Shown: positions 21,647-61,418 of the stretch, in pieces
Layout: each line of letters opens with the position of its first letter
Position numbering within the stretch: position 1 is the first letter of the stretch
Origin: Streptomyces sp. MST-110588
GTDB lineage: Bacteria > Actinomycetota > Actinomycetes > Streptomycetales > Streptomycetaceae
Assembly (NCBI RefSeq): GCF_022695595.1
Contig: NZ_CP074380.1
Span: 7,468,501 to 7,532,500 of the forward strand
Reading direction: 5' to 3'
DNA length: 64,000 nucleotides
The notes under the pieces: generated by a model
Seen by the model: only the letters and a program-made list of their open reading frames with translations
The model's database searches: none
What the model was told of the DNA's origin: nothing
Translations under genes and position numbers: made by a program

Positions 21647-21826
21647 GGGGAGGGAGTTGCCTTCCTGAAGGAGTGGTGCGAGGCGCCGGGCGCGGCGGCC
21701 GGTCGGGCCGCCGCGGCGCGGGCGCCGGACGTAACGGTCGGTCAGAGCGCCGGACGCAGCGGCTCCGTGGTGCCCGTCGTCGTCCGGGGCGCGGTCGCCG
21801 GGTTCAAAGGCTCGGTGGTGGCCGCC

Positions 21827-21901
21827 GCCGTGGTCGTGGCTGCCGTGGTGGTGGCCGGCGTGGTCGTGGCCGGCGTGGTCGTCACCGCCGTGGTCGTCGC
21901 C
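21827..21901. repeat. Five 15-bp tandem units across a stop codon
   Basis: The units G(C/G)CGTGGT(C/G)GT(G/C)(G/A)C(T/C) begin at 21827, 21842, 21857, 21872 and 21887. The stop codon of the upstream glycosyltransferase gene (21882-21884, minus strand) is inside the fourth unit. In the frame of the downstream gene the array reads as a G-[DH]-[DH]-H-[GA] pentapeptide repeat, and in another frame it is Thr/Pro-rich. Neither frame has a start of its own here. Confidence 0.8.
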
Positions 21902-24257: not shown

Positions 24258-24316
24258 GGTCGGTGTTACTCCTCGTAACGGGCATATACGCAATTTCGGA
24301 AAAGACCCGCCGAGGC

Positions 24317-46854: not shown

Positions 46855-46893
46855 GGAGTGGAGGTGAGGGGCTGAGCGGGCAAGGATGTTCGC

Positions 46894-47112
46894 TCAGCCC
46901 CTGGTCGCCTTGAGCATGTCCAGGTAGACGGGGAGTTTGTCGACGGCCTTGCGCGATACGGGGGCCACATGCCGGATTCCGCGTACGCCGTCCGTCACGG
47001 TCAGCGTGTAACGGCCGTCTTTGTAACGGAGTTGAGCGGTGTAGACCACGGTTCCGGCCTCGGTGTCCTTCTCCTCGGGCTCCGTGGTCACGTGGTCGGC
47101 TCCTTCGGTCAT
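46894..47112 (-). CDS. Small conserved protein of unknown function
   Basis: The product has 72 residues from ATG 47112, preceded by GGAGAAGGAGAA. It contains VVYTAQLRYKDGRYTLTVTD and KAVDKLPVYLDMLKATRG: a three-strand sheet followed by a helix. It has no export signal. I do not recognise the family. It converges on the cupin gene with only 39 bp between stops. Confidence 0.7.
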   Translation of the reverse strand: MTEGADHVTTEPEEKDTEAGTVVYTAQLRYKDGRYTLTVTDGVRGIRHVAPVSRKAVDKLPVYLDMLKATRG

Positions 47113-47351
47113 ACGCGTTCTCCTTTTCTCCTGCCTTCTCCGCCGGCGGAAGTCGCAGAGCAGGTGCGGTTCACGGGGCGGTCGCATCGTCCGCGAGGCG
47201 GAGTGCCTCGCCTACCCGAACGGGTGAATACACCTGTTTGGTCTGGTCCGGGGTACGGGATACCGCCTAGGCTGATCACGCAGGGCTTCAGTGTATACGC
47301 GCTAAGTGATACCCGACCCGTCCCGGGTGCAGTCCGCAGGGGGAGCGAGAC

Positions 47352-47393
47352 ATGACGACAGACCGCACGGTCTGCGGTGGCAGACACATGTGA
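47352..47393 (+). CDS. Possible 13-residue leader peptide
   Basis: ATG 47352 follows the strong ribosome site GGGGGAGCGAGAC. The short frame MTTDRTVCGGRHM ends at TGA 47393. Inside it the dyad CAGACC-GCAC-GGTCTG could form a hairpin. It lies 105 bp upstream of the DUF5132 gene. It may be an attenuator-type leader or chance. Confidence 0.3.
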   Translation: MTTDRTVCGGRHM

Positions 47394-47497
47394 CTCGCTG
47401 CGGTGTTGCAACAGAGTTCGCGGGATCGCCTCACGGTTTCGCGTCAGGCGATCCGACCGTCCCCCGTACGCGCACCGGATGAGAGGACCGAACCACC

Positions 47498-47767
47498 ATG
47501 GCCGCATTCCCTCCCTTTCTCGCTGGACTATTGGTGATTCCCGTCGCGAAGCGAGTGGTCAAACCACTCGCTCGGGGTGTGGTCAAGACGTCGCTGAAAC
47601 TCGCCATGGACGCCAAGAAGGCCGTTCACGAGGCGAGCGAGGAACTGCACGACCTCGCCGCGGAGGTGAGTGCCGAGGCGTTCATCGAGGAAGCCGCCGA
47701 CACGACGAACAAGGACGACCGCAAGGCCGCCCCGAAGCAGCGCTCCGCGCCGGCGAAGGCCCACTGA
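47498..47767 (+). CDS. DUF5132-type small membrane-associated protein
   Basis: The product has 89 residues with GAGAGGA upstream of ATG 47498. It starts MAAFPPFLAGLLVIPVAKRV, one hydrophobic segment, then VVKPLARGVVKTSLKLAMDA and a charged tail ending in KAAPKQRSAPAKAH. DUF5132 proteins are commonly found next to P-type metal ATPases and HMA-domain proteins in actinobacteria. Here the next gene starts with an HMA-like region fused to an ABC exporter, so the pair resembles that neighbourhood with the ATPase replaced. Confidence 0.75.
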   Translation: MAAFPPFLAGLLVIPVAKRVVKPLARGVVKTSLKLAMDAKKAVHEASEELHDLAAEVSAEAFIEEAADTTNKDDRKAAPKQRSAPAKAH

Positions 47768-47928
47768 CGTACGCAGGTGTGTGCGTGCGTACGTACGCGC
47801 CGGGCAAGGCTTCCGTTCCGTCCGCCGGCCGTACCGTCGCGCGCCCACCAGGCTTCCTCACAGGGGCCGTACGGGATGAGGCGTGCACGTACGCACAGTC
47901 GGCCCTCATCACCGGTGGTTCTCAGAAC

Positions 47929-50349
47929 ATGCCCTTTCTCCTGGACGCGTCACGCACGGGCGTGCCCGCACGAGGCCGTGCCCCGGCGGTGCTGCCCCTG
48001 CGGCCACGGTCCGTCGTTCCCGGACGTCAGCGCTGGGACGTCGCCCCCATCCTGCGCCGCCCTGCCCTCGCCCGGCTCGTGGAGACGACGCTCCTGGCCG
48101 TGCCGGGCTTCCATGAAGTGCGGGCCAACCCGGTCACCGGCCGGGTGCTGGTACTGCACGACCGTGCCCTTGACCCGGAGCAGGCGGAACGGCTGCTGCG
48201 CCGGGCCCTGTCGAGTGTGCCCGCGAAGGCCGCCGGACAACGCCACCGCTCCTGCGGTGCGAGGACGACGGGCAGCGGCACCGCGGGCGACGACGGTGCC
48301 GGGGCACGCGTACGGGCCGCCGGCGGGGAAGCGGCCCCGCGCCGTCCCCGCTCCCCGGCACGGCTCGCCGGGGTCGCGGCGGCCGGACTGGCCCTGGGGT
48401 GCGGGACATTCTGCGCCAAGCTTCTGCTGCGCCCCCTGGTCAGTCTCGGTGTCGTCGCCGTCGCGACGGCCGTCGTCATCAGACGGGGGTGGCGGCGGCC
48501 CCACGGCGAACAGCCCGAACCCGCGACCGGGCAACGCCACCCGCTGGCGCGCATCATCGGTCCGCACCGGCGCACGTTCGGTGTGGCCGCGCTGCTCTCG
48601 GTGCTCGGCCAGATCGCCGAGTCGGGCCTGTTCATGCTGGTCTCCTTCGCCGTCATGACCCTGAGCCAGGGGGAGAGTTCGGTCCTGGCGGCTCTGGGGC
48701 TGACGGCCACCGCGAGCCAGGTGCTGTTCCTCGCCGGAGCCGCCGCGCTGGTGTGCGTGGCGGTGGCCGGCCTGTCCTACGGCGCCCACGTCACCTGGCG
48801 AGGGCTGGGGCAGACGGTCGAGCACGAGTGGCGCACCACCACGTACGCCCACGTGCAGCGGCTGGCCCCGACGGACCTGGAGAGCGGCCGGACCAGCCGC
48901 ACCTCCCAGGTGCTGACCGAGGACGTCACCCAGATCGGCACCTTCGTCGGGCACACCCTGCACGAGACGATCCAACTGGCCACCTGCTTCGCCGTGATGG
49001 TACCGGCGTTCCTCCTGCTGGCCCCCCAGATCGCCTGGGTCGCCTTCGCGCCCGTACCGCTCGTCGCCTGGCTGTCGCTGCGCTACCACGAGCGCGCCGT
49101 CGCGGACCGGAGCACCTCGGGCGAGAACCGGGCGCGGCTGCACGCCCGGCTGGTGGACAACCTCCAGGCCGGTACGACCGTGAAGGCGTCCTGCGCCGAG
49201 GACCACGAGGAGGCCCGGATCGCCGCGATGAGCGCGGAATACGGCGAGACCAACCGCCGTACCGACCGCAGCGCGGTGCGGCAGGCCCAGATCGTACGGC
49301 TGTGTGCCGTGGCCGCGGTGCCGGGAACGCTCTTCGCGGGAGGCCGGGCCGTCATGAAGGGCGAACTGGCGGCGGAGGCGTTCGGCCCGCTGCTCGACCT
49401 GCCCGTGTCGGCGCTGTGGCGGCTCAACCGGCTCGGTCCCCTCACCGAGCAGTACCAGCGGACCCTCGCCGCCTTCGACCGGGTACGGCACCTGCGCGCC
49501 CTGCCCGTCGAGAAGGACGGGGGCGCCCCGCGACCGCGCGGCCACCGGGTCACCGGCGCCATGGCCCTGAAGAAGGTGACCTTCGCCTACCCGGGCCGCC
49601 CGGCGGCACTGCGCGACCTGTCGATGTACATCGCGCCGGGGCGGGTCACCGGAATCGTCGGCGCCACCGGCGCGGGCAAGACCACCGTCGCCAAACTGCT
49701 CATGCGCCTGCGGGAACCGGACGCGGGGCAGGTACTGCTGGACGGCGTCGACATCGCAGACCTGGCCCTGCACGACCTGCGCGGCGCGATCGGGTACGTC
49801 GCCCAGGAACCGTACATGTTCGACGGGACGATCGCCGACAACATCCGCTACGGCACGTTCGACGCCGATGACGCACGCCTCGCCGCGGCGGCGCGCACGG
49901 CCGGGGCGGACACCTTCATCGAGACGCTGCCCGACGGGTACGACACCGTCGTCGGGGAGCGCGGCGCCGCCCTGTCCGGCGGCCAGAAGCAGCGCATCGC
50001 CCTCGCCCGCACGATCCTGAAGAACCCCCCGATCGTCCTTCTGGACGAGGCCACCTCCGCGGTCGACAACGAGACCGAGGCGGCCATTCAGCAGGCGCTC
50101 AACACCTTCGCCGAGGACCGGACGCTGGTGGTCATCGCCCACCGGCTGTCCACCATCCGCAACGCCCACCACATCTACGTGCTGGCGCCGGGCGGCATCG
50201 TGGCGGAACAGGGGACCCATCCGGAGCTGGTGGGGCGCGGCGGGATCTACGCGGGTCTGTGGCAGCTCCAGGCGGGCGAGGAACCGCCCGTACCGTCACT
50301 GTCCCGCGCGCGGGGGGCGCCGGCCCGGGCCCGGGAGGCGGGACGCTGA
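47929..50349 (+). CDS. HMA-like domain fused to ABC exporter (permease plus ATPase)
   Basis: The product has 806 residues from ATG 47929. Residues about 40-100 resemble the HMA-type domain of metal ATPases (LARLVETTLLAVPGFHEV, NPVTGRVLVLHD) but lack a CxxC. An Arg/Gly-rich linker and a pair of hydrophobic segments follow. From about 200 to 500 is an ABC-type-I membrane domain, then the ATPase: Walker A GIVGATGAGKTTVAK, signature ALSGGQKQRIALART, Walker B PPIVLLDEATSAVD and H-loop VVIAHRLSTI. It is a full half-transporter that should dimerise to export a substrate. It converges on the LanB gene and could export the product of that cluster. Confidence 0.88.
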   Translation: MPFLLDASRTGVPARGRAPAVLPLRPRSVVPGRQRWDVAPILRRPALARLVETTLLAVPGFHEVRANPVTGRVLVLHDRALDPEQAERLLRRALSSVPAKAAGQRHRSCGARTTGSGTAGDDGAGARVRAAGGEAAPRRPRSPARLAGVAAAGLALGCGTFCAKLLLRPLVSLGVVAVATAVVIRRGWRRPHGEQPEPATGQRHPLARIIGPHRRTFGVAALLSVLGQIAESGLFMLVSFAVMTLSQGESSVLAALGLTATASQVLFLAGAAALVCVAVAGLSYGAHVTWRGLGQTVEHEWRTTTYAHVQRLAPTDLESGRTSRTSQVLTEDVTQIGTFVGHTLHETIQLATCFAVMVPAFLLLAPQIAWVAFAPVPLVAWLSLRYHERAVADRSTSGENRARLHARLVDNLQAGTTVKASCAEDHEEARIAAMSAEYGETNRRTDRSAVRQAQIVRLCAVAAVPGTLFAGGRAVMKGELAAEAFGPLLDLPVSALWRLNRLGPLTEQYQRTLAAFDRVRHLRALPVEKDGGAPRPRGHRVTGAMALKKVTFAYPGRPAALRDLSMYIAPGRVTGIVGATGAGKTTVAKLLMRLREPDAGQVLLDGVDIADLALHDLRGAIGYVAQEPYMFDGTIADNIRYGTFDADDARLAAAARTAGADTFIETLPDGYDTVVGERGAALSGGQKQRIALARTILKNPPIVLLDEATSAVDNETEAAIQQALNTFAEDRTLVVIAHRLSTIRNAHHIYVLAPGGIVAEQGTHPELVGRGGIYAGLWQLQAGEEPPVPSLSRARGAPARAREAGR

Positions 50350-50353
50350 GCGA

Positions 50354-50408
50354 GGGCGCCGGTCCGCGGCGCACGGAGCGGGTGCCCGTGCGCCGCGGAC
50401 CGGCGCCC
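50354..50408. terminator. Bidirectional terminator with 23-bp perfect stem
   Basis: The arms 50354-50376 and 50386-50408 are perfectly complementary (starting GGGCGCCGGTCCGCGG) with a 9-nt loop. It starts 5 bp after the ABC exporter stop codon and 32 bp from the end of the convergent LanB gene, so it probably stops both transcripts. Confidence 0.88.
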
Positions 50409-50439
50409 CCTCAATGCTCCCTGGCCGGTGCCCCGCCGG

Positions 50440-52923
50440 TCACTCTCCGGTCAGCGGATCACGATCACCGGCCGCCCGCCGCCGCGTCCGCAGCGGGTCG
50501 ACGGCGATGACGCGCAGTTCCGCCGTGTAGCGCTCACCGGCCGCGTCGGTCAGCCAGGTCTCGTCGGCGTCGGGCAGCGTCTCCGTGAGCGTGATCACCG
50601 CATCGGCGTCCCGTACCGCCGCCCGCCGTACCGCCGTGGCGAACAGGTTGACCAGAGCCGGACTCGTGAAGTCGGCATACATCGGCTTGTCCTCCGCCGG
50701 CGAGGTGTAGAACAGCCGGTCCGGGAGCGCCCGCGCGCCGCGCCAGGCCCGCGCGCCGAGGTAGCGCTCCGGTTCGTCCCGCAGCGCAGTCCAGGACAGG
50801 TCGGCGACCGGGAAGGACCAGGACTCCCGTGCCAGTACGAGACGGTCGACGGTGACGCGCGGCCGGTGCCGGGCCGGTGCGAAGGGGGCGAAGCTGTTGA
50901 CGGCGACTCCGGACAGCGGCTCGGACAGCACCTCCAGCAGCGGCGCGCGGAAGGTTCCCGCGCCGTCGCGCACCACGAGCCGGCCCTCCCCGTCGGAGTG
51001 GACGGACAGGTCCGCCAGCGCCAGCACCGGGCCCGTCGGCTCCACGCAGGGGTGACGTGTGGTCCAGTAGACGGTGTCCCGCCCCATCAGGGCCGAAGGC
51101 GGCGTCAGCCGGGGTCCGATCGACAGCCACCAGTTCTCCCGGGGAGGGATCATGTAGACGCGCTGTCCGGCGTGGTCGGCGGCGTCCGCGTCCATGAGGG
51201 CGCCGGGGTCCGGGTGCTGTTCCACCGCGGCGCGGTTCTCCAGGGTGTTGAAGGAGACGTGCAGTTCGCCCAGCACCACCTGGTAGTCGCCCGCGCCGAC
51301 CGCCTCGGCCGAGGCGGCGGCGATCATCAGGTCGGGCGCGTGGTGGATCGCCGCGGACCAGGGGGGCGGCGCGGGCGGGAACTCCTCGCGTACGAGACCG
51401 GCGAGCCGCCCCGAGGAGAAGGTCCGCCGCGCGCCCGGGGCCGTCCCGCCCTGCGGCAGCGCCGTCCTGCCCTGCGGCAGCGCCGTCCCGTCCTGTGGCC
51501 CCGCCGCCTCGCCCGGCGGCAGCGCTTCGAGGGCATCCAGCACCCGCGCCCACCGCTCCTGGAACTCACCGACCGCCGCCCGTACGGGAGCGGGAGCGGT
51601 CCGCAGCGAGAAGACGAGGTGCGGTGCGGCAATCTCCAGCAGCGCGGCCAGCGGCATGGCTCCGGGGCCGGACCGGCTCGCCGACCACTCCCGGTGAATG
51701 GCGTGGAACAGCGCCTCGTACTCCGTGGCGATCCGGCCGACGAGCCACCGGGCACTGTCCAGCACCGGCCCGAGCGCGCCCGCCAGTTCGCCGCGCAGCC
51801 GGGCGCCGAGTGCCACCCGTACGTCCCGGACGGTGTCCTCGTAGACCAGGGTGCGGCTGGCGTAGGTCTGCCCGTGCAGACGTACCGCCTCCTGGCCCGT
51901 GATGTCCTCGAACGTGCTGTTCAGCCGGTCCATCGCCGAGGCCAGCGCGTCCGGGTCACCGGCCGCCGCGGCGACCTGGCGCCGGGCGTTCAGCAGCCGG
52001 TCCAGCACCGCCAGCGCCCGCTCGCGCGGCTCCGGGTCGCCGATCGCCGCCAGTTTGTGCCGCAAGGTGCGCTCCGGCCACGCCTCGATCGGGCCTTCCA
52101 GGTCGACGGCGGCCAGGCCGTGCTCCTCGAAGCGGGCCAGCGCCCCGGTCAGGTCCGCCGGGTGTGGGAACGGGCGCTGCGCACCGACCAGTTCACGGAT
52201 CAGCTCCCGCACCGGCCGCCCCGCGTCACATGCCTTGAGCAGCATGGTCTCGGCAGCCGTCAGGCGCAGCGGCGCCCCGTACGGGCGGCGTGCGAGGTCA
52301 CCGTCGAGTACGACGGCCGGGTCGCGGCGCGGCACCAGCCACGGCCGCAGCGCCGGATCCGCCGCCAGGGCACGGGCGAGTGCGTCGATCGCCCAGCTCT
52401 CGAAGTACACCGTCCGGCGGGCGAGCAGACGCGGCCCGGGCACCACGCGCAGCGGCAGGTCCTGGGGGGCGTCGGTCCAGGACGCCCAGCCGGTCGGCCC
52501 GAAGAAGCCGATGGTGTCGTTCTTCAGGGCATAGCGCTGCAGGTGGGCGGCGATGGTCTTCTCGTGGTCCCGGCCGCGCTTGTTGCGCCGCTCCCCGGCT
52601 GCCGCCTTGTCCAGACAGGTGGCCACCAGCGCCCGGTTCTGCCAGGTGACCGCCTCCCGGAAGCGGCGGTCGGCGGCGATGTCGCGGACCGCCGTACGCA
52701 GCCGCTCCACCGAGGCGTCGAACACCGCCCGGAAGTCCCGGGTGCTGGAGGACCCGTCGAGCACGGCGTTGGCGGCCATGGCCAGTTGAGGATCGGCGAG
52801 CTCGTGGACCAGCCGGGCGGGGAACCCGGCGCCGCGCAGCAGGACGTCCCGCCACAACTGCCAGCCGGACGCCCCCAGCGGGAGGAGATGGGGCGCGCTG
52901 CCGGGCGCGCTCGCCGGCGTCAT
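50440..52923 (-). CDS. LanB-type (lantibiotic dehydratase / PEARL-like) enzyme in NRPS cluster
   Basis: The product has 827 residues. Features of the LanB glutamylation domain include YALKNDTIGFFGPTGWASW, LHGQTYASRTLVYEDTVRD, VLGELHVSFNTLENRAA and VTVDRLVLARESWSFPV. It lacks the roughly 300-residue elimination domain (SpaB-C) of full-length NisB, so it resembles split LanBs or PEARLs, which attach an amino acid from aminoacyl-tRNA to a peptide. The start ATG overlaps the A-T NRPS stop codon by 4 bp (ATGA). No LanC, elimination protein or precursor peptide is seen nearby. It may act on a carrier-protein-bound or released NRPS product; this is inference. Confidence 0.82.
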   Translation of the reverse strand: MTPASAPGSAPHLLPLGASGWQLWRDVLLRGAGFPARLVHELADPQLAMAANAVLDGSSSTRDFRAVFDASVERLRTAVRDIAADRRFREAVTWQNRALVATCLDKAAAGERRNKRGRDHEKTIAAHLQRYALKNDTIGFFGPTGWASWTDAPQDLPLRVVPGPRLLARRTVYFESWAIDALARALAADPALRPWLVPRRDPAVVLDGDLARRPYGAPLRLTAAETMLLKACDAGRPVRELIRELVGAQRPFPHPADLTGALARFEEHGLAAVDLEGPIEAWPERTLRHKLAAIGDPEPRERALAVLDRLLNARRQVAAAAGDPDALASAMDRLNSTFEDITGQEAVRLHGQTYASRTLVYEDTVRDVRVALGARLRGELAGALGPVLDSARWLVGRIATEYEALFHAIHREWSASRSGPGAMPLAALLEIAAPHLVFSLRTAPAPVRAAVGEFQERWARVLDALEALPPGEAAGPQDGTALPQGRTALPQGGTAPGARRTFSSGRLAGLVREEFPPAPPPWSAAIHHAPDLMIAAASAEAVGAGDYQVVLGELHVSFNTLENRAAVEQHPDPGALMDADAADHAGQRVYMIPPRENWWLSIGPRLTPPSALMGRDTVYWTTRHPCVEPTGPVLALADLSVHSDGEGRLVVRDGAGTFRAPLLEVLSEPLSGVAVNSFAPFAPARHRPRVTVDRLVLARESWSFPVADLSWTALRDEPERYLGARAWRGARALPDRLFYTSPAEDKPMYADFTSPALVNLFATAVRRAAVRDADAVITLTETLPDADETWLTDAAGERYTAELRVIAVDPLRTRRRAAGDRDPLTGE

Positions 52924-55085
52924 GTCATCGCTCCGGAGGTACGGGGCCCCTCAGCGGGGCCGGTGCGCCTGCCGGAGCCATCGGTGACCTGGGAGGCCCG
53001 GCCCTCACCCATCAGCTCCTGGACGTGCCGGCACAGGGCGGACAGGTCGGGCTGCCGCAGCAGCCGCGAGACCCGCACCCGCACACCGCAGTGCGACTCG
53101 ACGGCGTGGATGAGTTTCATCGCGGTCAGGGACGTGCCTCCGGCGGCCAGGAAGTTGTCGTCCGGCCGCAGCCCGCCGATCCCCAGCAGATCCTCACAGG
53201 TACGCAGCACCAGAGCCGTGACGTCGGACGGGGCGGCGGCCACCGGCGTACGGTCCCCGCCGTCCGGGCCGTCCGGGCCGTCCGGGCCGTCCGGCCGTCG
53301 TGGCGGCCCGGCGCACCGGGCGGCGGCTGCCAGCGCCCGGCGGTCCACCTTGCCGTTGGGCGTACAGGGATACTCCTCGACGACGGTGACGTGGGCGGGC
53401 AGCGCCTGTACGGGAAGCAACTCCCGGCAGCGCCGCAGGATCTGCGGCACATCGATGTCCTCACCCCGGCGTGCGCCCCGCAGGAAGGCGGCGAGCCGGG
53501 TCTGCGCCGGGGCCTCGCCGACGGGGACGACGACGGCCTGCCGTACGGAGCCCGCGCCGGCCCGTTCCAGCGCCGCCTCCACCTCCGCCATCTCGATCCG
53601 TACCCCACTGATCTTGATCTGCTGGTCCAGCCGTCCCAGGTACTCCAGCACTCCGTCCCGCCGCATCCGCACCTGGTCGCCGGTCCGGTAGACACGCGTG
53701 ACGCCTTCGCCGAAGCCGGGCGGCGGGGCGGTGAACCGGCAGGCCGTCTCGGCCGCCCGGCCCAGGTAGCCCAGGCTGAGCTGCGGCCCGGCGAGCACCA
53801 GCTCGCCCGTGCCGCCGCGCGGCAGCAGCCGCCCGTCCTCACCGATGACGCCCAGCCGTACACCGCCGACAGGACGCCCGATGGGCGGCGCGCCCTGGGC
53901 CCGGCCGTCGGCGAACTCCTCGGCGAGGCGGTGGGTGACGCAGAAGACCGTCGCCTCGGCGGGGCCGTACACGTTGTGGACCGCGGCCGTGGGGCGCCGC
54001 GGGCGGGAGCGCAGCTTGTCACCGCCGACGAACAGATGGCGCAGCGCCAGTCCTTCGGGCCACGGCGGCTCGAAGAGCAGCTCGGCGAGCGGGGTGGGCA
54101 CGATGGCGTGGGTGACGGCGCGTGCGCGCAGCCAGTCCACGAGCGCGCCGACCGAGCGTGCCACCTCTTCCGGGGCCTGCGGTACGCACAGGGTGGCGCC
54201 GAAGGCCAGGGCCGGCCACAGGTCGCCCAGGTGCGCGTCGAAGCCCGGCCGGATGAGCAGGGCGTGCCGGCAGCCCGGACCGGCGCCGTATGCCTGGCCG
54301 TAGCCACGCAGGAAGCCGCCCAGGGACGTGGCCGTGACGCCGACGGCCTTCGGCGTGCCGGTCGAGCCGGAGGTGAGGACGGCGTAGAAGGCCGCCTCGC
54401 ACATGCTCCTGGTGGCCGAGGGCAGTCCGGGCCGGCCCCGCGGCGGGTGGAGGGTCAAGGCGGTGTGCGGGGCGAGCGGCAGCCGCAGGTCCCGGCCCGG
54501 TCCGTACGCCGTGCCGGGGGCGGCCTGCCCCTTCTCGGTGATCAGGGAGCCGACGGGCAGGTCGCGTACGAGCGCGGTGACCCGGCCGGCCGGGGGCCGT
54601 GGGCCGAGCGGGAGGTAGACGGCGCCGAGCCGGGCCGCGGCCAGCGCCACCGCGACCAGCGCCGGGGAGTTCTCCAGACAGACGGCCACGACGTCGCCGG
54701 GGGCGACCGTGGGCGCCAGCCAGGAGGCGACCGCACCGGCCGCCTCGTCCAGTTGCCGGTACGTCCAGGTGCCGCTGCCGAAGTCCACGGCGGGCGCCCC
54801 GGGCGTGGCCTCCACCCACCTCCGGTACCAGTGGTAGGGAGTGGGGCCGGGGGCCGGGGGCGGCGGCAGCGCGGGCCCCGAGGCGAGGCTGAGCCGGTCC
54901 GCCTCCGCCCGGACGCCGGGGCCGGGGCCGGGGCCGGGGCCGGCCAGGTCATCGGGCGGCCGACGGCGCTCACCGGCCGGATGGTGTTCAGGGGCTGGAT
55001 GGTGTTCAGAGGACGGATGGTTTTCACCGGGCAGACGGTGCTCGCTCGGCGGTCGGTGTCCGCCCGGCGGACGGTGCTCGCTCAT
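52920..55085 (-). CDS. NRPS adenylation-thiolation didomain
   Basis: The product has 721 residues. After a repeat-bearing His/Pro-rich N-terminus (1-80) comes an A domain with LTSGSTGTPKAVGV (A3), NVYGPAEATVF (A5), VYRTGDQVRM (A7), QIKISGVRIEMAEVE (A8) and NGKVDRRAL (A10 Lys). A Pro/Gly/Asp linker leads to a carrier domain with LAAGGTSLTAMKL, phosphopantetheine Ser near residue 652. It should load one amino acid and hold it as a thioester. Asp of FDAHLGDLW would bind the amino group, so an alpha-amino acid is expected; I do not recognise the full specificity code. The start overlaps the acyl-CoA dehydrogenase stop by 4 bp and the stop overlaps the LanB start by 4 bp. Confidence 0.93.
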   Translation of the reverse strand: MSEHRPPGGHRPPSEHRLPGENHPSSEHHPAPEHHPAGERRRPPDDLAGPGPGPGPGVRAEADRLSLASGPALPPPPAPGPTPYHWYRRWVEATPGAPAVDFGSGTWTYRQLDEAAGAVASWLAPTVAPGDVVAVCLENSPALVAVALAAARLGAVYLPLGPRPPAGRVTALVRDLPVGSLITEKGQAAPGTAYGPGRDLRLPLAPHTALTLHPPRGRPGLPSATRSMCEAAFYAVLTSGSTGTPKAVGVTATSLGGFLRGYGQAYGAGPGCRHALLIRPGFDAHLGDLWPALAFGATLCVPQAPEEVARSVGALVDWLRARAVTHAIVPTPLAELLFEPPWPEGLALRHLFVGGDKLRSRPRRPTAAVHNVYGPAEATVFCVTHRLAEEFADGRAQGAPPIGRPVGGVRLGVIGEDGRLLPRGGTGELVLAGPQLSLGYLGRAAETACRFTAPPPGFGEGVTRVYRTGDQVRMRRDGVLEYLGRLDQQIKISGVRIEMAEVEAALERAGAGSVRQAVVVPVGEAPAQTRLAAFLRGARRGEDIDVPQILRRCRELLPVQALPAHVTVVEEYPCTPNGKVDRRALAAAARCAGPPRRPDGPDGPDGPDGGDRTPVAAAPSDVTALVLRTCEDLLGIGGLRPDDNFLAAGGTSLTAMKLIHAVESHCGVRVRVSRLLRQPDLSALCRHVQELMGEGRASQVTDGSGRRTGPAEGPRTSGAMT
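54954..55079 (-). repeat. Seven tandem 18-bp (hexapeptide) repeats at the NRPS 5' end
   Basis: Residues 3-44 of the A-T protein form seven hexapeptides of the type E-H-R/H-P-x-G/S: EHRPPG, GHRPPS, EHRLPG, ENHPSS, EHHPAP, EHHPAG and ERRRPP. They precede the A domain and look disordered and metal- or docking-capable. DNA-level similarity between units is visible as repeated GGTG(C/T)TC. Confidence 0.8.
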
Positions 55086-56335
55086 ACCGTGACCTCCGGC
55101 AGCAGCCGCTCTTCCTCTGCACGCCGCCCGGGGGCGCCGGGGGCGGGCCCCTGCGCCAGGCTGCCCAGCCCCAGGGCATGGGCGATGATCACCTTCTGGA
55201 TCTCGGTGGTGCCGCCGACGATCGGCATCATGCGGGCGTAGCGGTAGAGGTACTCCAAGGGGTGCCCCTTCATCCAGCCGCGCCCGCCGAGCACCTGCAA
55301 CGCGTGGTCGACGGCCCGTTTGAGCAGCTCGGTGGCGGTGATCTTGGCCATCGCCGCGTCCTCGGACGTCAACTCCTTGTACTCGTCGGCCTGGTGGGTG
55401 CAGGCCAGGGTCAGCAGCTTGGACGCCGCCAGTTCGGTCCTGGTGGTGACCAGGTGTTCCTGTACGTGCTGGAAGGTGCCGACGGGCCGGCCGAACGCCA
55501 CCCGCCGGCGGGCATGTTCCAGGCCCAGGTTCAGGGCGTACTCGGCCAGGCCGTTGCAGTCCGCGGCGGTCAGCACCCGGCCGCGCGGCAGGCTCAGCAT
55601 GCTGTGCGCAACGGCGAGATGCGCCTGCTCGGGGCCTCCCAGGACGGCGTCCGCCGGCAGCCGGACGTCGTTGAGCAGCAGCTCGTACAGCAACTCCCCG
55701 GACATGCCCTGGAAGGACTGCCGCACGGTCAGGCCGGGGGTGCCGGTGTCCACGATGAACACCGCCGTGCTGTTCGGGCCGCCGTGCTCGTCGGTGGCGG
55801 CGAAGACCAGGACGAAGTCGACGACCTCCAGGTTGCTCAGGAAGATCTTGTGGCCGTTCAGGACCCAGTCACTGCCGGACCGGCGGGCGCGGGTGGCCAG
55901 GTGGTAGGCGTCCGAACCGGCGAGGGGTTCGGTCAGTCCCAGGCTGCGCATCTTCTCGGCCCGTACCAGCGGGGCGAGATAGCGCTGCTGCTGTTCGGGA
56001 GTGCCGTGGGCCAGGAGGGGTGTGGGGCCCTCGGGCCCGGGGAGGGCCAGCGGGGCGAGCGGACAGCCACTGCCGCCCGCCAGGTGCCGCAGCACCGCCA
56101 CCGCCGTCAGCGGCAGGCCGCGTCCGCCCACCGCCTCGGGGAACTCCGCGCCGTAGAAGCCGAGTTCGGCCGAGCGGCGGCGCACATGGCGCTTGACGTC
56201 CTGCGGGATGTGCTCGGGCGTACTCTCGCCGAACTCCTCCCACAGTGGTTCCAGTTCGCCGGTGACGAAGCGCCGGAACGCCTCGATGGTGGGCTGGTGC
56301 CGCGTTTCGAACACGGCGGTGAGGCTGGCGTTCAC
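55082..56335 (-). CDS. Acyl-CoA dehydrogenase-like flavoprotein
   Basis: The product has 417 residues from GTG 56335 with AAAGGA upstream. It has a normal ACAD layout: helical N-domain, FAD-binding middle (SLGLTEPLAGSDAYHLATRA, DWVLNGHKIFLSN) and C-domain (VAFGRPVGTFQHVQEHL, VLGGRGWMKGHPLEYLYR). The usual catalytic Glu of YEGT is replaced: the motif reads PIVGGTTEIQK. The alternative position used by isovaleryl-CoA dehydrogenase reads SLPRGRV and lacks it too. In NRPS loci such proteins desaturate carrier-bound aminoacyl groups, as in pyrrole formation from prolyl-PCP. It is coupled to the A-T gene by a 4-bp overlap. Confidence 0.9.
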   Translation of the reverse strand: MNASLTAVFETRHQPTIEAFRRFVTGELEPLWEEFGESTPEHIPQDVKRHVRRRSAELGFYGAEFPEAVGGRGLPLTAVAVLRHLAGGSGCPLAPLALPGPEGPTPLLAHGTPEQQQRYLAPLVRAEKMRSLGLTEPLAGSDAYHLATRARRSGSDWVLNGHKIFLSNLEVVDFVLVFAATDEHGGPNSTAVFIVDTGTPGLTVRQSFQGMSGELLYELLLNDVRLPADAVLGGPEQAHLAVAHSMLSLPRGRVLTAADCNGLAEYALNLGLEHARRRVAFGRPVGTFQHVQEHLVTTRTELAASKLLTLACTHQADEYKELTSEDAAMAKITATELLKRAVDHALQVLGGRGWMKGHPLEYLYRYARMMPIVGGTTEIQKVIIAHALGLGSLAQGPAPGAPGRRAEEERLLPEVTV

Positions 56336-56423
56336 GGTGTCCTTTCGTGTTCCTGTGGTGTGCGTGCCGGCCCGTCCTCGGACTCCTCCTGGCTCCCTCG
56401 GTTCGCGGGGACGGCGGCAGGCG

Positions 56424-59400
56424 TCAGGCCGGCAGCGGATCCCGTTCCCCCGCCCAGACGTCCAGGGCCTCGGCCAGCGCCTCGAAGACCGGGTTCTCGA
56501 AGACGATGCGCAGCGGTGGCCGGGCGCCCAGGCGGTCCCCGAGCCAGCTCACGAGGTGGATCACGAGCAGGGAGTGGCCACCGACACGGAAGAAGTGCGA
56601 GGAACGGGTGAAGGCGTCGTGCCCCAGCACCTCCCGCCAGCCCTCGGCGAGCACCTTCCGTACGCCGTGCCCGTGGCCGGCCGGTGACGGACCGGCTCCG
56701 TCCCCGCCACCGTTGTGCTCCTCGCGCGGTTCCGGAGCCGCCCGCCGGGCGATGCGCTCCAGCGCGGCCCGGTCCGGCTTGCCGCCCGGCAGGCTGGGCA
56801 GGGTCTCCAGCCGCACCCACAGGGCGGGCAGCAAAGGGCCCGGAAGGCGCTCGGCCAGCAGCTCGGACACCCGCTCCGGCGGCAGGGAGCCGCCGCTGAA
56901 GAAGCCCACCAGGCGCGGCGCCAGGGGTCCCGATCCGTCGTGCACGACGGCGCACGGCAGGTCCCCGGTCACCTGGCGGGCTGCGGCCTCGATCTCCTCC
57001 AGTTCGATGCGGTGCCCGCGCAGCTTGACCTGGTTGTCCGCACGGCCCAGGAAGTACAGCTCCCCGTCGGGGCCGAGGTAGCCGCGGTCACCGGAGAAGT
57101 ACGCGCGAAGTTCCTTCCCGCCCGGGCCCGGCAGGGTGGCGAAGCGGGCGGCCTGTGCCTTCGGCGCGTCCAGGTACCCGTCGGCGAGGGCGGGGCCGCA
57201 GACGGCGATCTCCCCGACCATGCCGGGCGGCAGCGGGCGGCGCAGCGCGTCCAGGACGTACACGGTGGTGCCGGGCAGCGGGCGCCCCAACGGCAGCTCC
57301 CCGAGCGGGTGGTGATCGTCCCGGGCACCGACCTCGTGCACGGTGGAGGTGACGGTGGCCTCGGTGATGCCGTACGCGTTCAGGACCCTGCCGCCGCCCA
57401 GCGCCTGGGCCGCATCGCACGCCGCGCCGGCGTGCAGCCGCTCACCGCCGAGCACCAGCAGACGCGGGCGCCACCGGCGCTGCCGGAAGCACCCGGTCAG
57501 CTCGCCGCGCACCGAAAGGAAGTAGCTGGTGGGCAGGTTGACCACGCTGACCTCGCGGGCCGCGGCCAGCGCGATGAGCTCCTCGGCGGAGGGGAGGTCC
57601 TTGCGGGGCAGCACCACGGCCCCTCCCGCGTGGAGGGTGGGCAGGATCTCCTCCAACGAGACGTCGAACCAGGGTTGTGCGAAGGCCAGGGCCCGGTCCT
57701 GGGAGGTGAGCTGGAACCGCCGGGTGATCGCCGTCAGGTAGTGGGCGAGGGCCGTACGGCCTACGGCCACCGCCTTGGGGCGGCCGGTCGAGCCGGAGGT
57801 GTGGATCACGTACGCGGCTCCCGGCAGCCGGCGCGCCTCACCCTGGCACCCGGCGTCCCGGCCCGTCTGCACGCGCAACGGCCGGGGCGCGGGCGATGCC
57901 GGTGGCGGTGGCGAAGGAATGGCGGCTGCCGGGGACCGGGGCGTGGCGTACGGGGACTGTCCGGGCACCTGGGTGTCCGCATGGCTCAGCACCACCTGCG
58001 GACGCAGCCGTTGCAGCGCCGCCGTACGGCGCGAGGGCGGGTCCTTCGGCGACAGCGGGCAGGCCACCGCCCCCATCCGCAGACACGCCAGCAGCGCCAC
58101 GATCCAGTCGGTGCCCTTGGGCAGTACGCAGGCCACCAGGCCGCCCTCGCCGACGCCGTGGGCCCGCAGCACCCCGGTCAGGGCGACGATGCGCTGTTCG
58201 AGGGCGCCGTGGTCCAGCGTACGCAGTCCGGTGATCAGCGCGGGGCGGCGCGGGTCCCGGGCGGCGACCGTGCGCACCAGCCCCGTCAGGATCTCCTCGG
58301 CCTGCGCGGCGCACAGGTCTGCCGCCGCGGCGTCCGTAACCGTCGTGTCGTCCGGCGCCGTCGTGTCGTCCCGGGCCGTCCCGGGCTCCTCCCCGGTGGA
58401 GTCGCGCGGTGTGGCGTCGAGCAGGGCCAGGGGCGTCCCGGGCCGCTCCAGGTAGTCCCGTACGAGGGCGTCGAACCGGGTGTGCAGCGTGTGCACCGTG
58501 GCCTCGTCGAAGAGGTCGGCGTCGTACTCCCACAGCAGGGTCGCCCCGCCCTGGCCCGCGCGCGGGCCGACCGTACGCCGGGCGTCCGGCAGCAGTACGA
58601 CGTCGAGGTCGAACCGTACGGTCCCGAAGTTCAGGCCCTCCTGTACGGTCACCTCCAGGCCGGGCACCTCGCCGTCAGGCAGCACCGCGTCGTGCGCGCT
58701 GAACATCGCCCGGAACAGCGGGTTCCTCAGATCCGCCGCGTATCTGCCCAGGGCCCGGGTGACCTCCTGGATGGGCGCGTCCGCGTGGGCCAGGCCACGG
58801 ACCACGTCCTCGGCGACATCGTCGATCACCTCGCACGCCGGGCGTTCGGGGGCGGCCTCCAGCCTGACCGGGACGGTGTTGACGAACATGCCCACCGACT
58901 CCTCGAAGCCCTCCGGCCGGGTGTCCACGGCGGTGCCCAGCACCAGGCCCGGATCGGGGCTGTGCCGCCGCAGCAGCTCCCCGAAGAGCCCCAGCAGCGT
59001 CACGAACGGGGTGTGCCCCTGCTGCCGGCTGATCTCGCGCAGCCGGGTGGCCGTCGCCACGTCGAACGTACGGCGGAGCTGTGCGCCGCGCTCACCGCGG
59101 GCCGGGCCACGGGAGAGTCCCGGCAGCCGCAGTTCGGTGGTGGCGCCGTCCAGGGCTGCCGCCCAGTGCTCGACGCTCCGGCGCCGCTCCTCGGCGGGCC
59201 GCCGGCATGCGGGCAGCTCCAGGAACTCCTCGTACGGCCGGGTCGGCGGCAGCTCCGGAGGTTTGCCCGACAGATTCGCCGCGTAACAGGAGAACAGGTC
59301 GCGCAGCGCGACCGCGAAGGACCGCCCGTCGTGGATCAGGTGGTGCTCGGTGTGCAGAAGGCGGTGGTGCTCGGGGCCGAGGGTCACCAGGGTCCAGCGG

Positions 59401-59744
59401 ATCAGCGGCGCTTCGTCGAGACGGAAGGGCGTGGTGGCGTGCCGGCGCAGCACCTCGTCGTAGCGTTCGCCGCCGACCGGTTCACCGGTGAGGTCGACGG
59501 TCGCGTACCGGGGCTCGCAGGACGGGAGGACCCGCTGCGTGGCGGGCGTGTGGTCGCCCGGCTCCAGTGCCAGCCGCAGACCGCTGTGGCGGGCGAGCAG
59601 TTGGGCCAGTGCGCGGCGCAGCGCGGCGGTATCGAGCCGGCCGCGCAGGTCGATGACGGCGGTGAAGTGGTAGGCGTGCCCGTCGGGGAACGCCTGCTCG
59701 TGGAACCAGACGATTTCCTGGGACGGGGAGAGCGGCAGCGGCAC
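56424..59744 (-). CDS. NRPS condensation-adenylation-thiolation module
   Basis: The product has 1106 residues from GTG 59744 with AAGGAG eight bases upstream. Residues 1-430 are a condensation domain beginning PLPLSPSQEIVWFHEQ, with active-site HHLIHDG near 133. The A domain (about 470-960) has VIHTSGSTGRPKAVAV, NAYGITEATV, YFSGDRGYLG, NQVKLRGHRIELEEIEA and GGKPDRAAL. The carrier domain has FRVGGHSLLVIHL, Ser near 1056. No epimerisation or thioesterase domain is present. It should condense an upstream acyl or aminoacyl donor with its own amino acid. With the A-T gene it makes a two-amino-acid assembly line lacking an obvious release step. Confidence 0.95.
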   Translation of the reverse strand: MPLPLSPSQEIVWFHEQAFPDGHAYHFTAVIDLRGRLDTAALRRALAQLLARHSGLRLALEPGDHTPATQRVLPSCEPRYATVDLTGEPVGGERYDEVLRRHATTPFRLDEAPLIRWTLVTLGPEHHRLLHTEHHLIHDGRSFAVALRDLFSCYAANLSGKPPELPPTRPYEEFLELPACRRPAEERRRSVEHWAAALDGATTELRLPGLSRGPARGERGAQLRRTFDVATATRLREISRQQGHTPFVTLLGLFGELLRRHSPDPGLVLGTAVDTRPEGFEESVGMFVNTVPVRLEAAPERPACEVIDDVAEDVVRGLAHADAPIQEVTRALGRYAADLRNPLFRAMFSAHDAVLPDGEVPGLEVTVQEGLNFGTVRFDLDVVLLPDARRTVGPRAGQGGATLLWEYDADLFDEATVHTLHTRFDALVRDYLERPGTPLALLDATPRDSTGEEPGTARDDTTAPDDTTVTDAAAADLCAAQAEEILTGLVRTVAARDPRRPALITGLRTLDHGALEQRIVALTGVLRAHGVGEGGLVACVLPKGTDWIVALLACLRMGAVACPLSPKDPPSRRTAALQRLRPQVVLSHADTQVPGQSPYATPRSPAAAIPSPPPPASPAPRPLRVQTGRDAGCQGEARRLPGAAYVIHTSGSTGRPKAVAVGRTALAHYLTAITRRFQLTSQDRALAFAQPWFDVSLEEILPTLHAGGAVVLPRKDLPSAEELIALAAAREVSVVNLPTSYFLSVRGELTGCFRQRRWRPRLLVLGGERLHAGAACDAAQALGGGRVLNAYGITEATVTSTVHEVGARDDHHPLGELPLGRPLPGTTVYVLDALRRPLPPGMVGEIAVCGPALADGYLDAPKAQAARFATLPGPGGKELRAYFSGDRGYLGPDGELYFLGRADNQVKLRGHRIELEEIEAAARQVTGDLPCAVVHDGSGPLAPRLVGFFSGGSLPPERVSELLAERLPGPLLPALWVRLETLPSLPGGKPDRAALERIARRAAPEPREEHNGGGDGAGPSPAGHGHGVRKVLAEGWREVLGHDAFTRSSHFFRVGGHSLLVIHLVSWLGDRLGARPPLRIVFENPVFEALAEALDVWAGERDPLPA

Positions 59745-59921
59745 GGGACGGACTCCTTGGGTACGGCGGGGACTGCGGCGCGGTGACCGTGGCGCGGTGA
59801 CCGTGCCGGGGGACTGAGGAGGACGACCGCGGTGGGGACCGTGGAGGAGGGACGTAGTGAAGAGGGGCTGTGGCGGTGTGGGGGTATGGGGCAGGGGGTC
59901 GTGGCGGGGAGCGGGCGGGAC

Positions 59922-61139
59922 TCACCAGGTGACCGGAACGGCCTCCGGGGTACGCAGGATCAGGCCGTCGCGCCAGGACAGCCGTTCCGCGGGGACGGCC
60001 AGGCGCAGGCCGGACAGACGGGGGAGCAGCGCGGCCAGCGCGCAGTGGATCTGCAGACGGGCCAGTGCCGCGCCGGGGCAGTAGTGCTCGCCGTGCCCGA
60101 ACGCCAGATGCTCGGCGTCCCGGCGCGTGACCTCCAGCCGGCCGGGCCGGGGGAAGGCGGCGGGGTCGTGGTCGGCGGCGTGCAGGGCCACCACCACCAG
60201 CTCGCCGGCGGCGACCGTGACACCGCCGATCCGTACGCGCTCGGTGGCGATCCGGGCGACACCCCGGTTCTCGATCAGCACGTACCGCAGGAGTTCCTCC
60301 ACCGCCGCGGGCAGCAGCCGCGCGGGGTCCTGGGCCGTACGGCGGGCCTGCTCCGGGTGGCGCAGCAGGGCGACGGCGGCCAGCGCGAGAAAACTGATGA
60401 GGGTCTTGTACCCGACCACCAGCAACCCGGCCGCCACGTCCAGGAGTTCGTCCTCGGAGAAGGACCCGCGCTGTTCGTGGGCGGCGACCAGAGTGGTGAG
60501 CAGGCCGTCGCCGGGGTGGCGCCGCTCCCGGGCCACCGCCTGGGCCAGGTACCCGCGCAGACCCGCCCAACTTGCCGCGATCTCCCGCGGATCACGGCTG
60601 TTCATGCTGAACGCCACGTCGGACCAGTACGTCAGGTGCTCTTCGTCCGCGTACGGGGGCAGCCCGTTGCGGCCCGTCTCCAGACCCAGCACCCGGCACA
60701 TCACCGCCAGCGGAAGCGGCGCCGCGTAATCGGCCACCAGGTTCCCCGGTGCGCCCCGCCGTATCATGGCCTCCAGCAGTCCTTCCGCCAGGCTTTCGAG
60801 CCACGGGCGGTGCACGGCGATCCGGCGCGGGCGCAGGTGCTGCAGCACCGCCTTGGCCTCGCCGGTCCGGCGCAGCAGCTCCATGCCGTTGAAGGCGTCG
60901 GGGGGCACGCTCGGGATCTGCTGGCGCGGCCCGCCGGGGGATGCGATCGCGCTCCGGCTGAAGCGGGCGTCCCCGAGCACGGCGCGGCATTCCTCGTAGC
61001 CGGTGACGAGCCAGGCGGGATCTCCTGTGGGCGTGGTGATCCGGGCGATGGGCCGCTCACGCAGCAGACGCTTGTACTCGGGCTCCAGTTCGAGCCCGCC
61101 TGAGGTGAAGGGATAGCCGATGACAGTCTCGGTACTGAT
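59922..61139 (-). CDS. Cytochrome P450, apparent ATC start codon
   Basis: A GTG at 60980 gives 352 residues but cuts off the conserved P450 N-terminus. The open frame continues upstream: ISTETVIGYPFTSGGLELEP, LLRERPIARITTPTGDPAWL, VTGYEECRAVLGDARFSR. No ATG, GTG or TTG occurs before the upstream TAG. An ATC at 61139 has GGAG six bases upstream and gives 405 residues, the normal length. Heme ligand Cys is in FGHGEHYCPG, and ExxR in EELLRY. The I-helix reads VVGYKTLI, with Lys where Asp/Glu is usual before Thr. It may hydroxylate a carrier-bound amino acid of the NRPS line. Confidence 0.85.
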   Translation of the reverse strand: MSTETVIGYPFTSGGLELEPEYKRLLRERPIARITTPTGDPAWLVTGYEECRAVLGDARFSRSAIASPGGPRQQIPSVPPDAFNGMELLRRTGEAKAVLQHLRPRRIAVHRPWLESLAEGLLEAMIRRGAPGNLVADYAAPLPLAVMCRVLGLETGRNGLPPYADEEHLTYWSDVAFSMNSRDPREIAASWAGLRGYLAQAVARERRHPGDGLLTTLVAAHEQRGSFSEDELLDVAAGLLVVGYKTLISFLALAAVALLRHPEQARRTAQDPARLLPAAVEELLRYVLIENRGVARIATERVRIGGVTVAAGELVVVALHAADHDPAAFPRPGRLEVTRRDAEHLAFGHGEHYCPGAALARLQIHCALAALLPRLSGLRLAVPAERLSWRDGLILRTPEAVPVTW

Positions 61140-61418
61140 GGCGTGCTCCGTATCGGGTTCGTGGGACGTACGTACGGAAGGCGCGTCGAAGCGGGACCGG
61201 CACAGGGAGCGCGCGTCCTACAAGGCTCCCGTTCACCGCGGGATGGCTGGGGTGATGCGTGTCTTCGCGAGCCGCAAAGCGGACACTGCCCGTCGGAAGG
61301 GTCGAAAAACCCGCCTCATTCCAAACCACCCGCCGGAATGAAAGGGAGGCTCACACGCTCCCCGCCCACGCCCCCAAGCCCCCAGCGCACGCCCCGCCTG
61401 AGGTCCCCGGGACACGCA
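61140..61418. promoter_or_regulatory. Upstream region of the biosynthetic operon with a dyad
   Basis: This region holds the only gap of notable size before the P450 gene and so probably carries the cluster promoter. TCATTCC-N12-GGAATGA (61316-61341) is a perfect dyad. CGTACGTACG (near 61168-61177) is a palindrome closer to the gene. No regulator gene of the cluster is present, so an outside regulator would bind here. Confidence 0.4.

What the first reader, a model, noticed from the sequence alone, without database searches (positions are those of the whole stretch)
50440..61139. NRPS operon ending in a LanB/PEARL-like enzyme, with no peptide precursor
Five genes on one strand, two junctions with ATGA overlaps, encode P450, C-A-T, acyl-CoA dehydrogenase, A-T and a LanB-type protein. 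LanB glutamylation domains known so far use aminoacyl-tRNA to modify a ribosomal peptide. Here there is no precursor peptide, LanC or elimination partner, and the NRPS genes have no thioesterase. A plausible reading is that the LanB-like enzyme transfers an amino acid from tRNA onto the carrier-bound or released NRPS intermediate, acting as the release or tailoring step.
Basis: partly seen in the sequence, partly recalled or inferred. Interest (0 to 1): 0.88.

Follow-up and report, generated by a model that had tools for sequence, protein, structure and literature searches.

The report
Ureido-peptide operon with PEARL-like ligase
This Streptomyces operon most likely makes a small urea-linked peptide and lengthens it at its far end with an amino acid taken from tRNA, a trick first shown for another bacterium's cluster in 2024, so it is a variant of a known system whose odd point is a helper enzyme that has lost its usual catalytic residue.

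Summary
The five genes, their order and the two ATGA overlaps are real. The 827-residue protein has the LanB glutamylation fold without the elimination domain, and its conserved residues look PEARL-like (aminoacyl-tRNA ligase). C-A-T / acyl-CoA dehydrogenase / A-T is the chain-reversing cassette of antipain-like clusters, and a like cassette lies elsewhere in this genome; here it is joined to a PEARL and a P450. Best reading: the NRPS builds X-CO-Y, leaving X a free carboxylate; the PEARL-like enzyme activates it with ATP and couples it to an aminoacyl-tRNA. It thus works at the end away from the thioester and is probably not the release step. The operon recurs complete in a second Streptomyces genome. 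New: the dehydrogenase, kin of a reported arginine cyclase, has Gly for the catalytic Glu yet is the most constrained of the five genes. PEARL kin lie near NRPS domains in 28 of 30 loci read. Product, tRNA and release are unknown.

The parts
59922..61139 (-). Cytochrome P450, first gene; ATC start conserved in the second genome
   Evidence: PF00067; 86% identical in G664; ATC in both genomes
56424..59744 (-). C-A-T NRPS module with a ureido-forming type C domain (EHHLIHDG at about 59348) and A-domain code DVENVGAVT
   Evidence: Pfam; motif; 120 of the 120 homologues listed of 545 carry EHHL[IV]HDG
55082..56335 (-). Acyl-CoA dehydrogenase-like flavoprotein with Gly374 in place of the catalytic Glu
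   Evidence: Pfam; Gly374 against Glu/Asp in 116 of 121; aligned with the Glu of EGTSEIQ in solved short-chain dehydrogenases
52920..55085 (-). A-T didomain, the probable loading unit; code read as DAGIFGVVF
   Evidence: Pfam; code
50440..52923 (-). LanB-fold PEARL-like ligase, 827 aa, no elimination domain
61140..61399 (-). 5' region of the operon, conserved in G664 (88% over 61399-60901)
   Evidence: blastn
50350..50439 (.). GC-rich hairpin between the convergent LanB-like and ABC genes, probable two-way terminator
   Evidence: fold z-score -8.0 on 50345-50445; sequence
47377..50349 (+). Convergent ABC transporter gene (real start probably downstream of 47377), conserved beside the operon
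   Evidence: PF00664 and PF00005; 86% identical in G664 over most of its length
46894..47187 (-). Small conserved protein, 72-97 aa, no Pfam family; kin lie downstream of P450 genes near NRPS genes

Best explanation
The operon makes a short ureido peptide that is extended on both sides of a urea link. The A-T protein loads amino acid X and the C-A-T protein loads Y (probably arginine). The Curea domain joins their amino groups through a carbonyl, giving X-CO-Y-S-T, so X keeps a free, unactivated carboxylate that the NRPS cannot extend. The LanB-like protein, a PEARL-like ligase, phosphorylates that carboxylate with ATP, lets the amine of an aminoacyl-tRNA attack it, and hydrolyses the tRNA ester, adding one amino acid opposite to the NRPS direction. 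The P450 and the altered flavoprotein tailor the chain. Release is not by the PEARL but by hydrolysis, a thioesterase from elsewhere, or self-cyclisation. Shown: genes, order, conservation, signatures, fold, residues. Inferred from the SnaE precedent: the reaction and its site. Guessed: Y = Arg, X hydrophobic, the tRNA identity, release.
For: EHHLIHDG matches the EHHXXHDG signature that the 2024 paper says appears sufficient and necessary for ureido formation (motif), and 120 of the 120 listed C-A-T homologues carry it. A-T plus Curea-A-T is SnaA's domain set split over two proteins (paper). The enzyme has PF04738 without PF14028, the TbtB/MibB/NisB fold, and invariant Arg30, Arg130, Glu553-x-His555 and Glu802-x-Arg804 in 40 of 40 relatives aligned (40 of the 120 listed); Glu553-x-His555 is absent from both other LanBs of this genome and Glu802-x-Arg804 from the one in which that stretch can be read. 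Published PEARL residues have the same patterns. Complete operon in G664. NRPS A or C domains in 28 of 30 loci of relatives against 1 of 20 windows of the own genome. Curea motif in 4 of those 30. C-A-T/ACAD/A-T order with the Curea motif also in 7 of 7 other ACAD loci read, of 10 listed.
Against: No chemistry was measured. SnaE's sequence could not be fetched, so no direct alignment with it or with TglB/BhaBCTrp; residue matches rest on spacing and on alignment to LanBs. In the window the Tyr of the expected CCA site is His127 (Tyr in 33, His in 7 of 40). 24 of 30 PEARL loci show NRPS domains but no Curea motif in the stretch held, so the clade is not tied to urea formation; on the tree the Curea label needs 4 changes. 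No MbtH or thioesterase family was seen in the 40 window frames scanned.
Confidence: 0.72

Rival explanations
1. The PEARL-like enzyme is the release or capping step: it acts on the Y end, coupling the aminoacyl-tRNA to the carboxyl freed from the last carrier protein.
For: No thioesterase or reductase domain in the five proteins; the gene is last in the operon and overlaps the A-T gene.
Against: PEARLs are described as starting from a free carboxylate and ATP, not a thioester. The Curea motif supplies such a carboxylate at the other end, and SnaE works there. One Curea-PEARL relative, L050, has a thioesterase gene of its own nearby.
Confidence: 0.1
2. It is a tRNA-dependent glutamylating LanB (dehydratase half) that modifies a Ser/Thr of the NRPS chain or of an unseen ribosomal peptide.
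For: Same fold as TbtB, NisB and MibB; PF04738. Two of five annotated plasmid loci of relatives have a LanM gene some 5-10 kb away.
Against: No PF14028 in the protein or the window; the own genome's three PF14028 places lie at 1.77 and 5.73 Mb, beside its other two LanBs. Glu553-x-His555 is invariant here and absent from both of those; Glu802-x-Arg804 is absent from one and falls in a gap in the other, whose frame ends early. The block conserved with G664 (46891-61399) holds no recognisable precursor.
Confidence: 0.06
3. The enzyme adds an amino acid to something else, such as a side-chain carboxylate or a tailored intermediate, and the urea's free end is not its acceptor.
For: 26 of 30 loci of relatives lack the Curea motif in the stretch held; some have a stand-alone A domain, carrier protein and PLP enzyme; a review notes that some PEARLs attach Gly to an indole ring.
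Against: Here the Curea cassette offers the very substrate type of the precedent; Curea motif and PEARL-like gene occur together in five other loci, two of them near-copies (L040, L048, L050, L070, G664).
Confidence: 0.12

Closest known systems
Threopeptin cluster (sna) of Stackebrandtia nassauensis with PEARL-like SnaE (PMC11212132, 2024; abstract and text up to the start of the reference list read)
   Same: NRPS with two A-T units and one Curea domain, a stand-alone LanB-like ligase, an acyl-CoA dehydrogenase, no precursor peptide.
   Different: sna has one A-T-C-A-T protein, a PKS, MbtH protein and thioesterase, and no P450 is named; here the NRPS is split, no PKS or thioesterase is seen and the dehydrogenase lacks its Glu. 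SnaO's Glu was not checked.
Antipain / chymostatin / omicsynin-type ureido clusters (PMC12783407, passages read)
   Same: The window's C-A-T, ACAD and A-T order, C motif and C-A-T A-domain code recur in cassettes that I take for this type; one lies in this genome at C1:387-397 kb.
   Different: Those loci continue with further A and C domains; the paper describes a terminal reductase, which I did not look for in them. Here elongation modules are missing and a PEARL and P450 are added.
PEARLs TglB, AmmB, BhaB (PMC11962472 passages, PMC12945691 section 9)
   Same: LanB-like protein without elimination domain; Arg, Glu-x-His and Glu-x-Arg patterns.
   Different: Those extend ribosomal carrier peptides; here none is recognisable.
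Livipeptin of Streptomyces lividans (PMC10548850, abstract read)
   Same: A tRNA-using enzyme cooperates with an NRPS.
   Different: The enzyme is of the leucyl/phenylalanyl transferase family and the NRPS lacks a C domain.

Membership tests
PEARL (peptide aminoacyl-tRNA ligase) | PF04738-type domain and LanB glutamylation-domain fold without elimination domain PF14028 | tested here: met
   PF04738 only; fold
PEARL (peptide aminoacyl-tRNA ligase) | ATP-site residues (BhaBCTrp Glu575, His577, Arg715, Glu813, Arg815; Asp558) | tested here: inconclusive
   Glu553-x-His555, Arg689, Glu802-x-Arg804 in 40 of 40 match by pattern; Asp531 fits Asp558 only with a 5-residue shift; no PEARL sequence was at hand to align
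PEARL (peptide aminoacyl-tRNA ligase) | tRNA 3'-CCA Arg (BhaBCTrp Arg208) and active-site Arg (Arg34) | tested here: inconclusive
   Arg130 and Arg30 are invariant in 40 of 40 and align with Arg in both other LanBs of the genome; equating them with Arg208 and Arg34 rests on pattern; the nearby Tyr is His127 here
PEARL (peptide aminoacyl-tRNA ligase) | ATP- and aminoacyl-tRNA-dependent amide bond formation | not testable with these tools
   needs purified enzyme
Ureido-forming C domain (Curea) | active-site signature EHHXXHDG | tested here: met
   EHHLIHDG
Ureido-forming C domain (Curea) | urea formation between two loaded amino acids | not testable with these tools
   needs assay
Class I lantibiotic dehydratase (LanB) | elimination domain PF14028 fused or encoded nearby | tested here: not met
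   not in the protein and none of the genome's three PF14028 places lies in the window
ACAD-type arginine cyclase (AnpI/OmnC kin) | kinship with the ACADs of ureido cassettes | tested here: met
   52-56% identical to most of the 120 listed homologues; same gene order in 7 of 7 loci read. That AnpI is an ACAD of this kind is recalled; the passage read says only 'arginine cyclase'
ACAD-type arginine cyclase (AnpI/OmnC kin) | catalytic Glu of the EGTSEIQ motif | tested here: not met
   Gly374; 5 of 121 have Gly, 116 Glu or Asp

The most novel reading that the evidence does not exclude
A minimal, thioesterase-free assembly line that grows in two directions: the urea-linked chain is lengthened from tRNA at one end while the thioester end frees itself, for instance by ring closure of a urea nitrogen onto the thioester to a hydantoin; the flavoprotein, stripped of its catalytic base, no longer cyclises arginine but does another job under strong selection, perhaps in partnership with the P450.
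Probability: 0.15. Interest if true: 0.65.

Novelty: new variant of a known kind. Interest (0 to 1): 0.42.

Why it matters
It is a compact test bed for how aminoacyl-tRNA enzymes were drafted into nonribosomal pathways: two carrier proteins, one ligase, two oxidising enzymes, and a sister cassette without the ligase in the same genome as a natural control. If right, it gives a second, PKS-free case beside threopeptin and predicts a urea peptide extended from tRNA. The flavoprotein that lost its base but stays the most constrained gene asks a sharp mechanistic question, and the spread of PEARL kin beside NRPSs without the urea signature says the known case may be only one use of this enzyme class.
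Full report
WHAT IS THERE. The five genes are as described, on the minus strand between 61139 and 50440. Pfam: P450; Condensation, AMP-binding, PP-binding; acyl-CoA dehydrogenase domains; AMP-binding, PP-binding; Lant_dehydr_N alone. Two junctions are ATGA overlaps. The window lies at 7.47-7.53 Mb of a single-contig 7.9-Mb genome; the nearest named relative of the LanB-like protein is from Streptomyces sp. CB02923 (82%). A strong GC hairpin (z -8.0) sits between the last gene and a convergent ABC transporter gene. Forty window frames were scanned with Pfam; no thioesterase PF00975, elimination domain, LanC or MbtH family was seen.

IS IT A UNIT. A second genome, G664, has P450, C-A-T, ACAD, A-T and LanB-like in the same order at 86, 92 (C) and 86 (A), 95, 83 and 81% identity, plus the convergent ABC gene (86%) and the small protein (54%); the M4 peptidase, cupin, WD40 and Hsp70 proteins of the window gave no match in the 40 kb. 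Its contig length equals that given for CB02923 and it holds CB02923's C-A-T from residue 6 on letter for letter, so it is that strain or a near copy. The stop in G664's LanB-like stretch lies at its end, 8 codons before the match ends. DNA similarity starts at about 61399 and runs past the ABC gene to about 46891, the last 0.5 kb at 73%. dN/dS, window against G664: P450 0.35, C-A-T 0.28, ACAD 0.13, A-T 0.47, LanB-like 0.47. By equal contig length the protein lists suggest LanB-like, ACAD and C-A-T together in Streptomyces sp. NPDC017529, and LanB-like plus C-A-T in S. rimosus, from which no ACAD of this kind is among the 120 listed of 735; contig length is an inference, not a map.

THE C DOMAIN. 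Yu and van der Donk (PMC11212132; abstract and text up to the start of the reference list read) report that ureido-forming C domains carry EHHXXHDG and that C domains with other functions in MIBiG do not. The window's C domain reads EHHLIHDG. Of 545 homologues of the C domain the 120 best were listed, the window's own entry included; 120 of 120 carry EHHLIHDG (87) or EHHLVHDG (33). The A-domain code could be read in 119 of them; most are DVENVGA[VI]T or DVENVGV[IV]S. That this code means arginine is an inference from gene kinship, not a test.

SISTER CASSETTES. The own genome has a second C-A-T / ACAD / A-T cassette at C1 about 387-394 kb followed by further A and C domains. Five other genomes (L092-L096) and G664's second copy (L123) have the same order. 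All 7 carry EHHL[ITV]HDG and none has a LanB hit. One search listed 10 such other ACAD places; three (in G360, G583, G350) were not read. PMC12783407 (passages) calls OmnC a homologue of AnpI, an arginine cyclase of antipain biosynthesis; one listed ACAD (52%) comes from Streptomyces sp. NRRL 30471, the strain of the muraymycin cluster (PMC4902027 passages). That the cyclase is an ACAD-like flavoenzyme acting on an NRPS-bound intermediate is recalled from a paper not held. The loading A-T of the window and G664 has another pocket (DAGIFGVVF, DAGIFGAVL) than six of the seven sister cassettes, which begin DP; the seventh, L096, reads DAMFGGAVV. X therefore probably differs.

NEIGHBOURHOODS. I read 30 loci of relatives, 6.6-22 kb long (3, 20 of the matches, 7; chosen by score, window and G664 not counted). 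A or C domains at 50 bits or more: 28 of 30; in 20 spaced 20-kb windows of the own genome: 1 of 20. At 80 bits: 26 of 30 against 0 of 20. C domains alone at 50 bits: 23 of 30 against 0 of 20. The two without are L005 and the 6.6-kb contig L066. The control is one genome only. Curea motif: 4 of 30 (L040, L048, L050, L070). L048 and L050, near-copies of each other, have SnaA-like A-T-C-A-T proteins, and L050 a thioesterase gene. Kin of the window's ACAD or P450 at 50 bits: 0 of 30. In a tree of 37 proteins (3 rows dropped for a stop in the matched stretch: one each of L054, L057, G664; matches under 1.8 kb also left out) the Curea label needs 4 changes, at least 2 forced by well-supported branches; 15 of 500 shuffles came as low. 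So the enzyme and urea chemistry have met or parted more than once, unless motifs lie outside the stretches. Of five annotated plasmid loci of more distant kin (32-37% identity), four have A or C domain genes nearby and three an MbtH gene; the fifth has no NRPS gene in the stretch, and two also have a LanM gene 5-10 kb away.

THE ODD FLAVOPROTEIN. In the window's ACAD and its 120 listed homologues (of 735), position 374 is Glu in 113, Asp in 3 and Gly in 5: the window, P0125 (CB02923), P0126 (NPDC017529), P0127 (NPDC050617) and the fragment P0223. It aligns with the Glu of EGTSEIQ in short-chain acyl-CoA dehydrogenases, the catalytic base by textbook knowledge (recalled). The acidic residue that 100 of 121 have at 247 is Leu here. 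Yet its dN/dS is the lowest of the five. So it is not decaying, and probably does not do the usual dehydrogenation.

MECHANISM. Two A-T units and a Curea domain give X-CO-Y on a carrier, with X's carboxylate free. A PEARL needs just that: a free carboxylate, ATP and an aminoacyl-tRNA. This accounts for a ligase without a precursor peptide and without an elimination partner. It does not account for release, and I could not identify X, Y or the tRNA.

VERDICT. What remains new is the variant: a split ureido cassette without PKS, joined to PEARL and P450, with a base-less flavoprotein.

Noticed in passing
window 55082-56335 (residue 374): ACAD-like protein with Gly for the catalytic Glu, shared by 5 of 121 homologues, under the strongest constraint in the operon.
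   Followed up: partly
window 46894-47187, minus strand: Small protein without Pfam family; kin in G309, G317 and G221 lie just downstream of P450 genes near NRPS genes: possibly a P450/NRPS helper.
   Followed up: partly
window 61139: The P450 appears to start with ATC, with an upstream GGAG, identical in a second genome; no ATG, GTG or TTG fits until 60980.
   Followed up: partly
own genome C1:387000-397000 (L079): Second ureido cassette (C-A-T, ACAD with the usual Glu, A-T, more A and C domains): probable antipain-like cluster.
   Followed up: partly
own genome C1:5732765 (L001) and C1:1772944 (L002): Two further LanB genes, each with an elimination domain beside or fused (PF14028 at 5734901, 5736989 and 1771751).
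   Followed up: partly
L041-L045, L047, L057, L073, L124: Clusters with two PEARL-like genes each around a stand-alone A domain; in L073 and L124 also a PLP enzyme and carrier protein, with a LanM gene some kb away: a separate group of NRPS-linked PEARLs.
   Followed up: partly
window 61314-61343, minus strand: Hairpin followed by a T-rich stretch between the M4 peptidase gene and the P450 gene.
   Followed up: no
window 18053-24293, minus strand: Two large neighbouring glycosyltransferase / CDP-glycerol glycerophosphotransferase proteins, probably cell-wall polymer genes.
   Followed up: no
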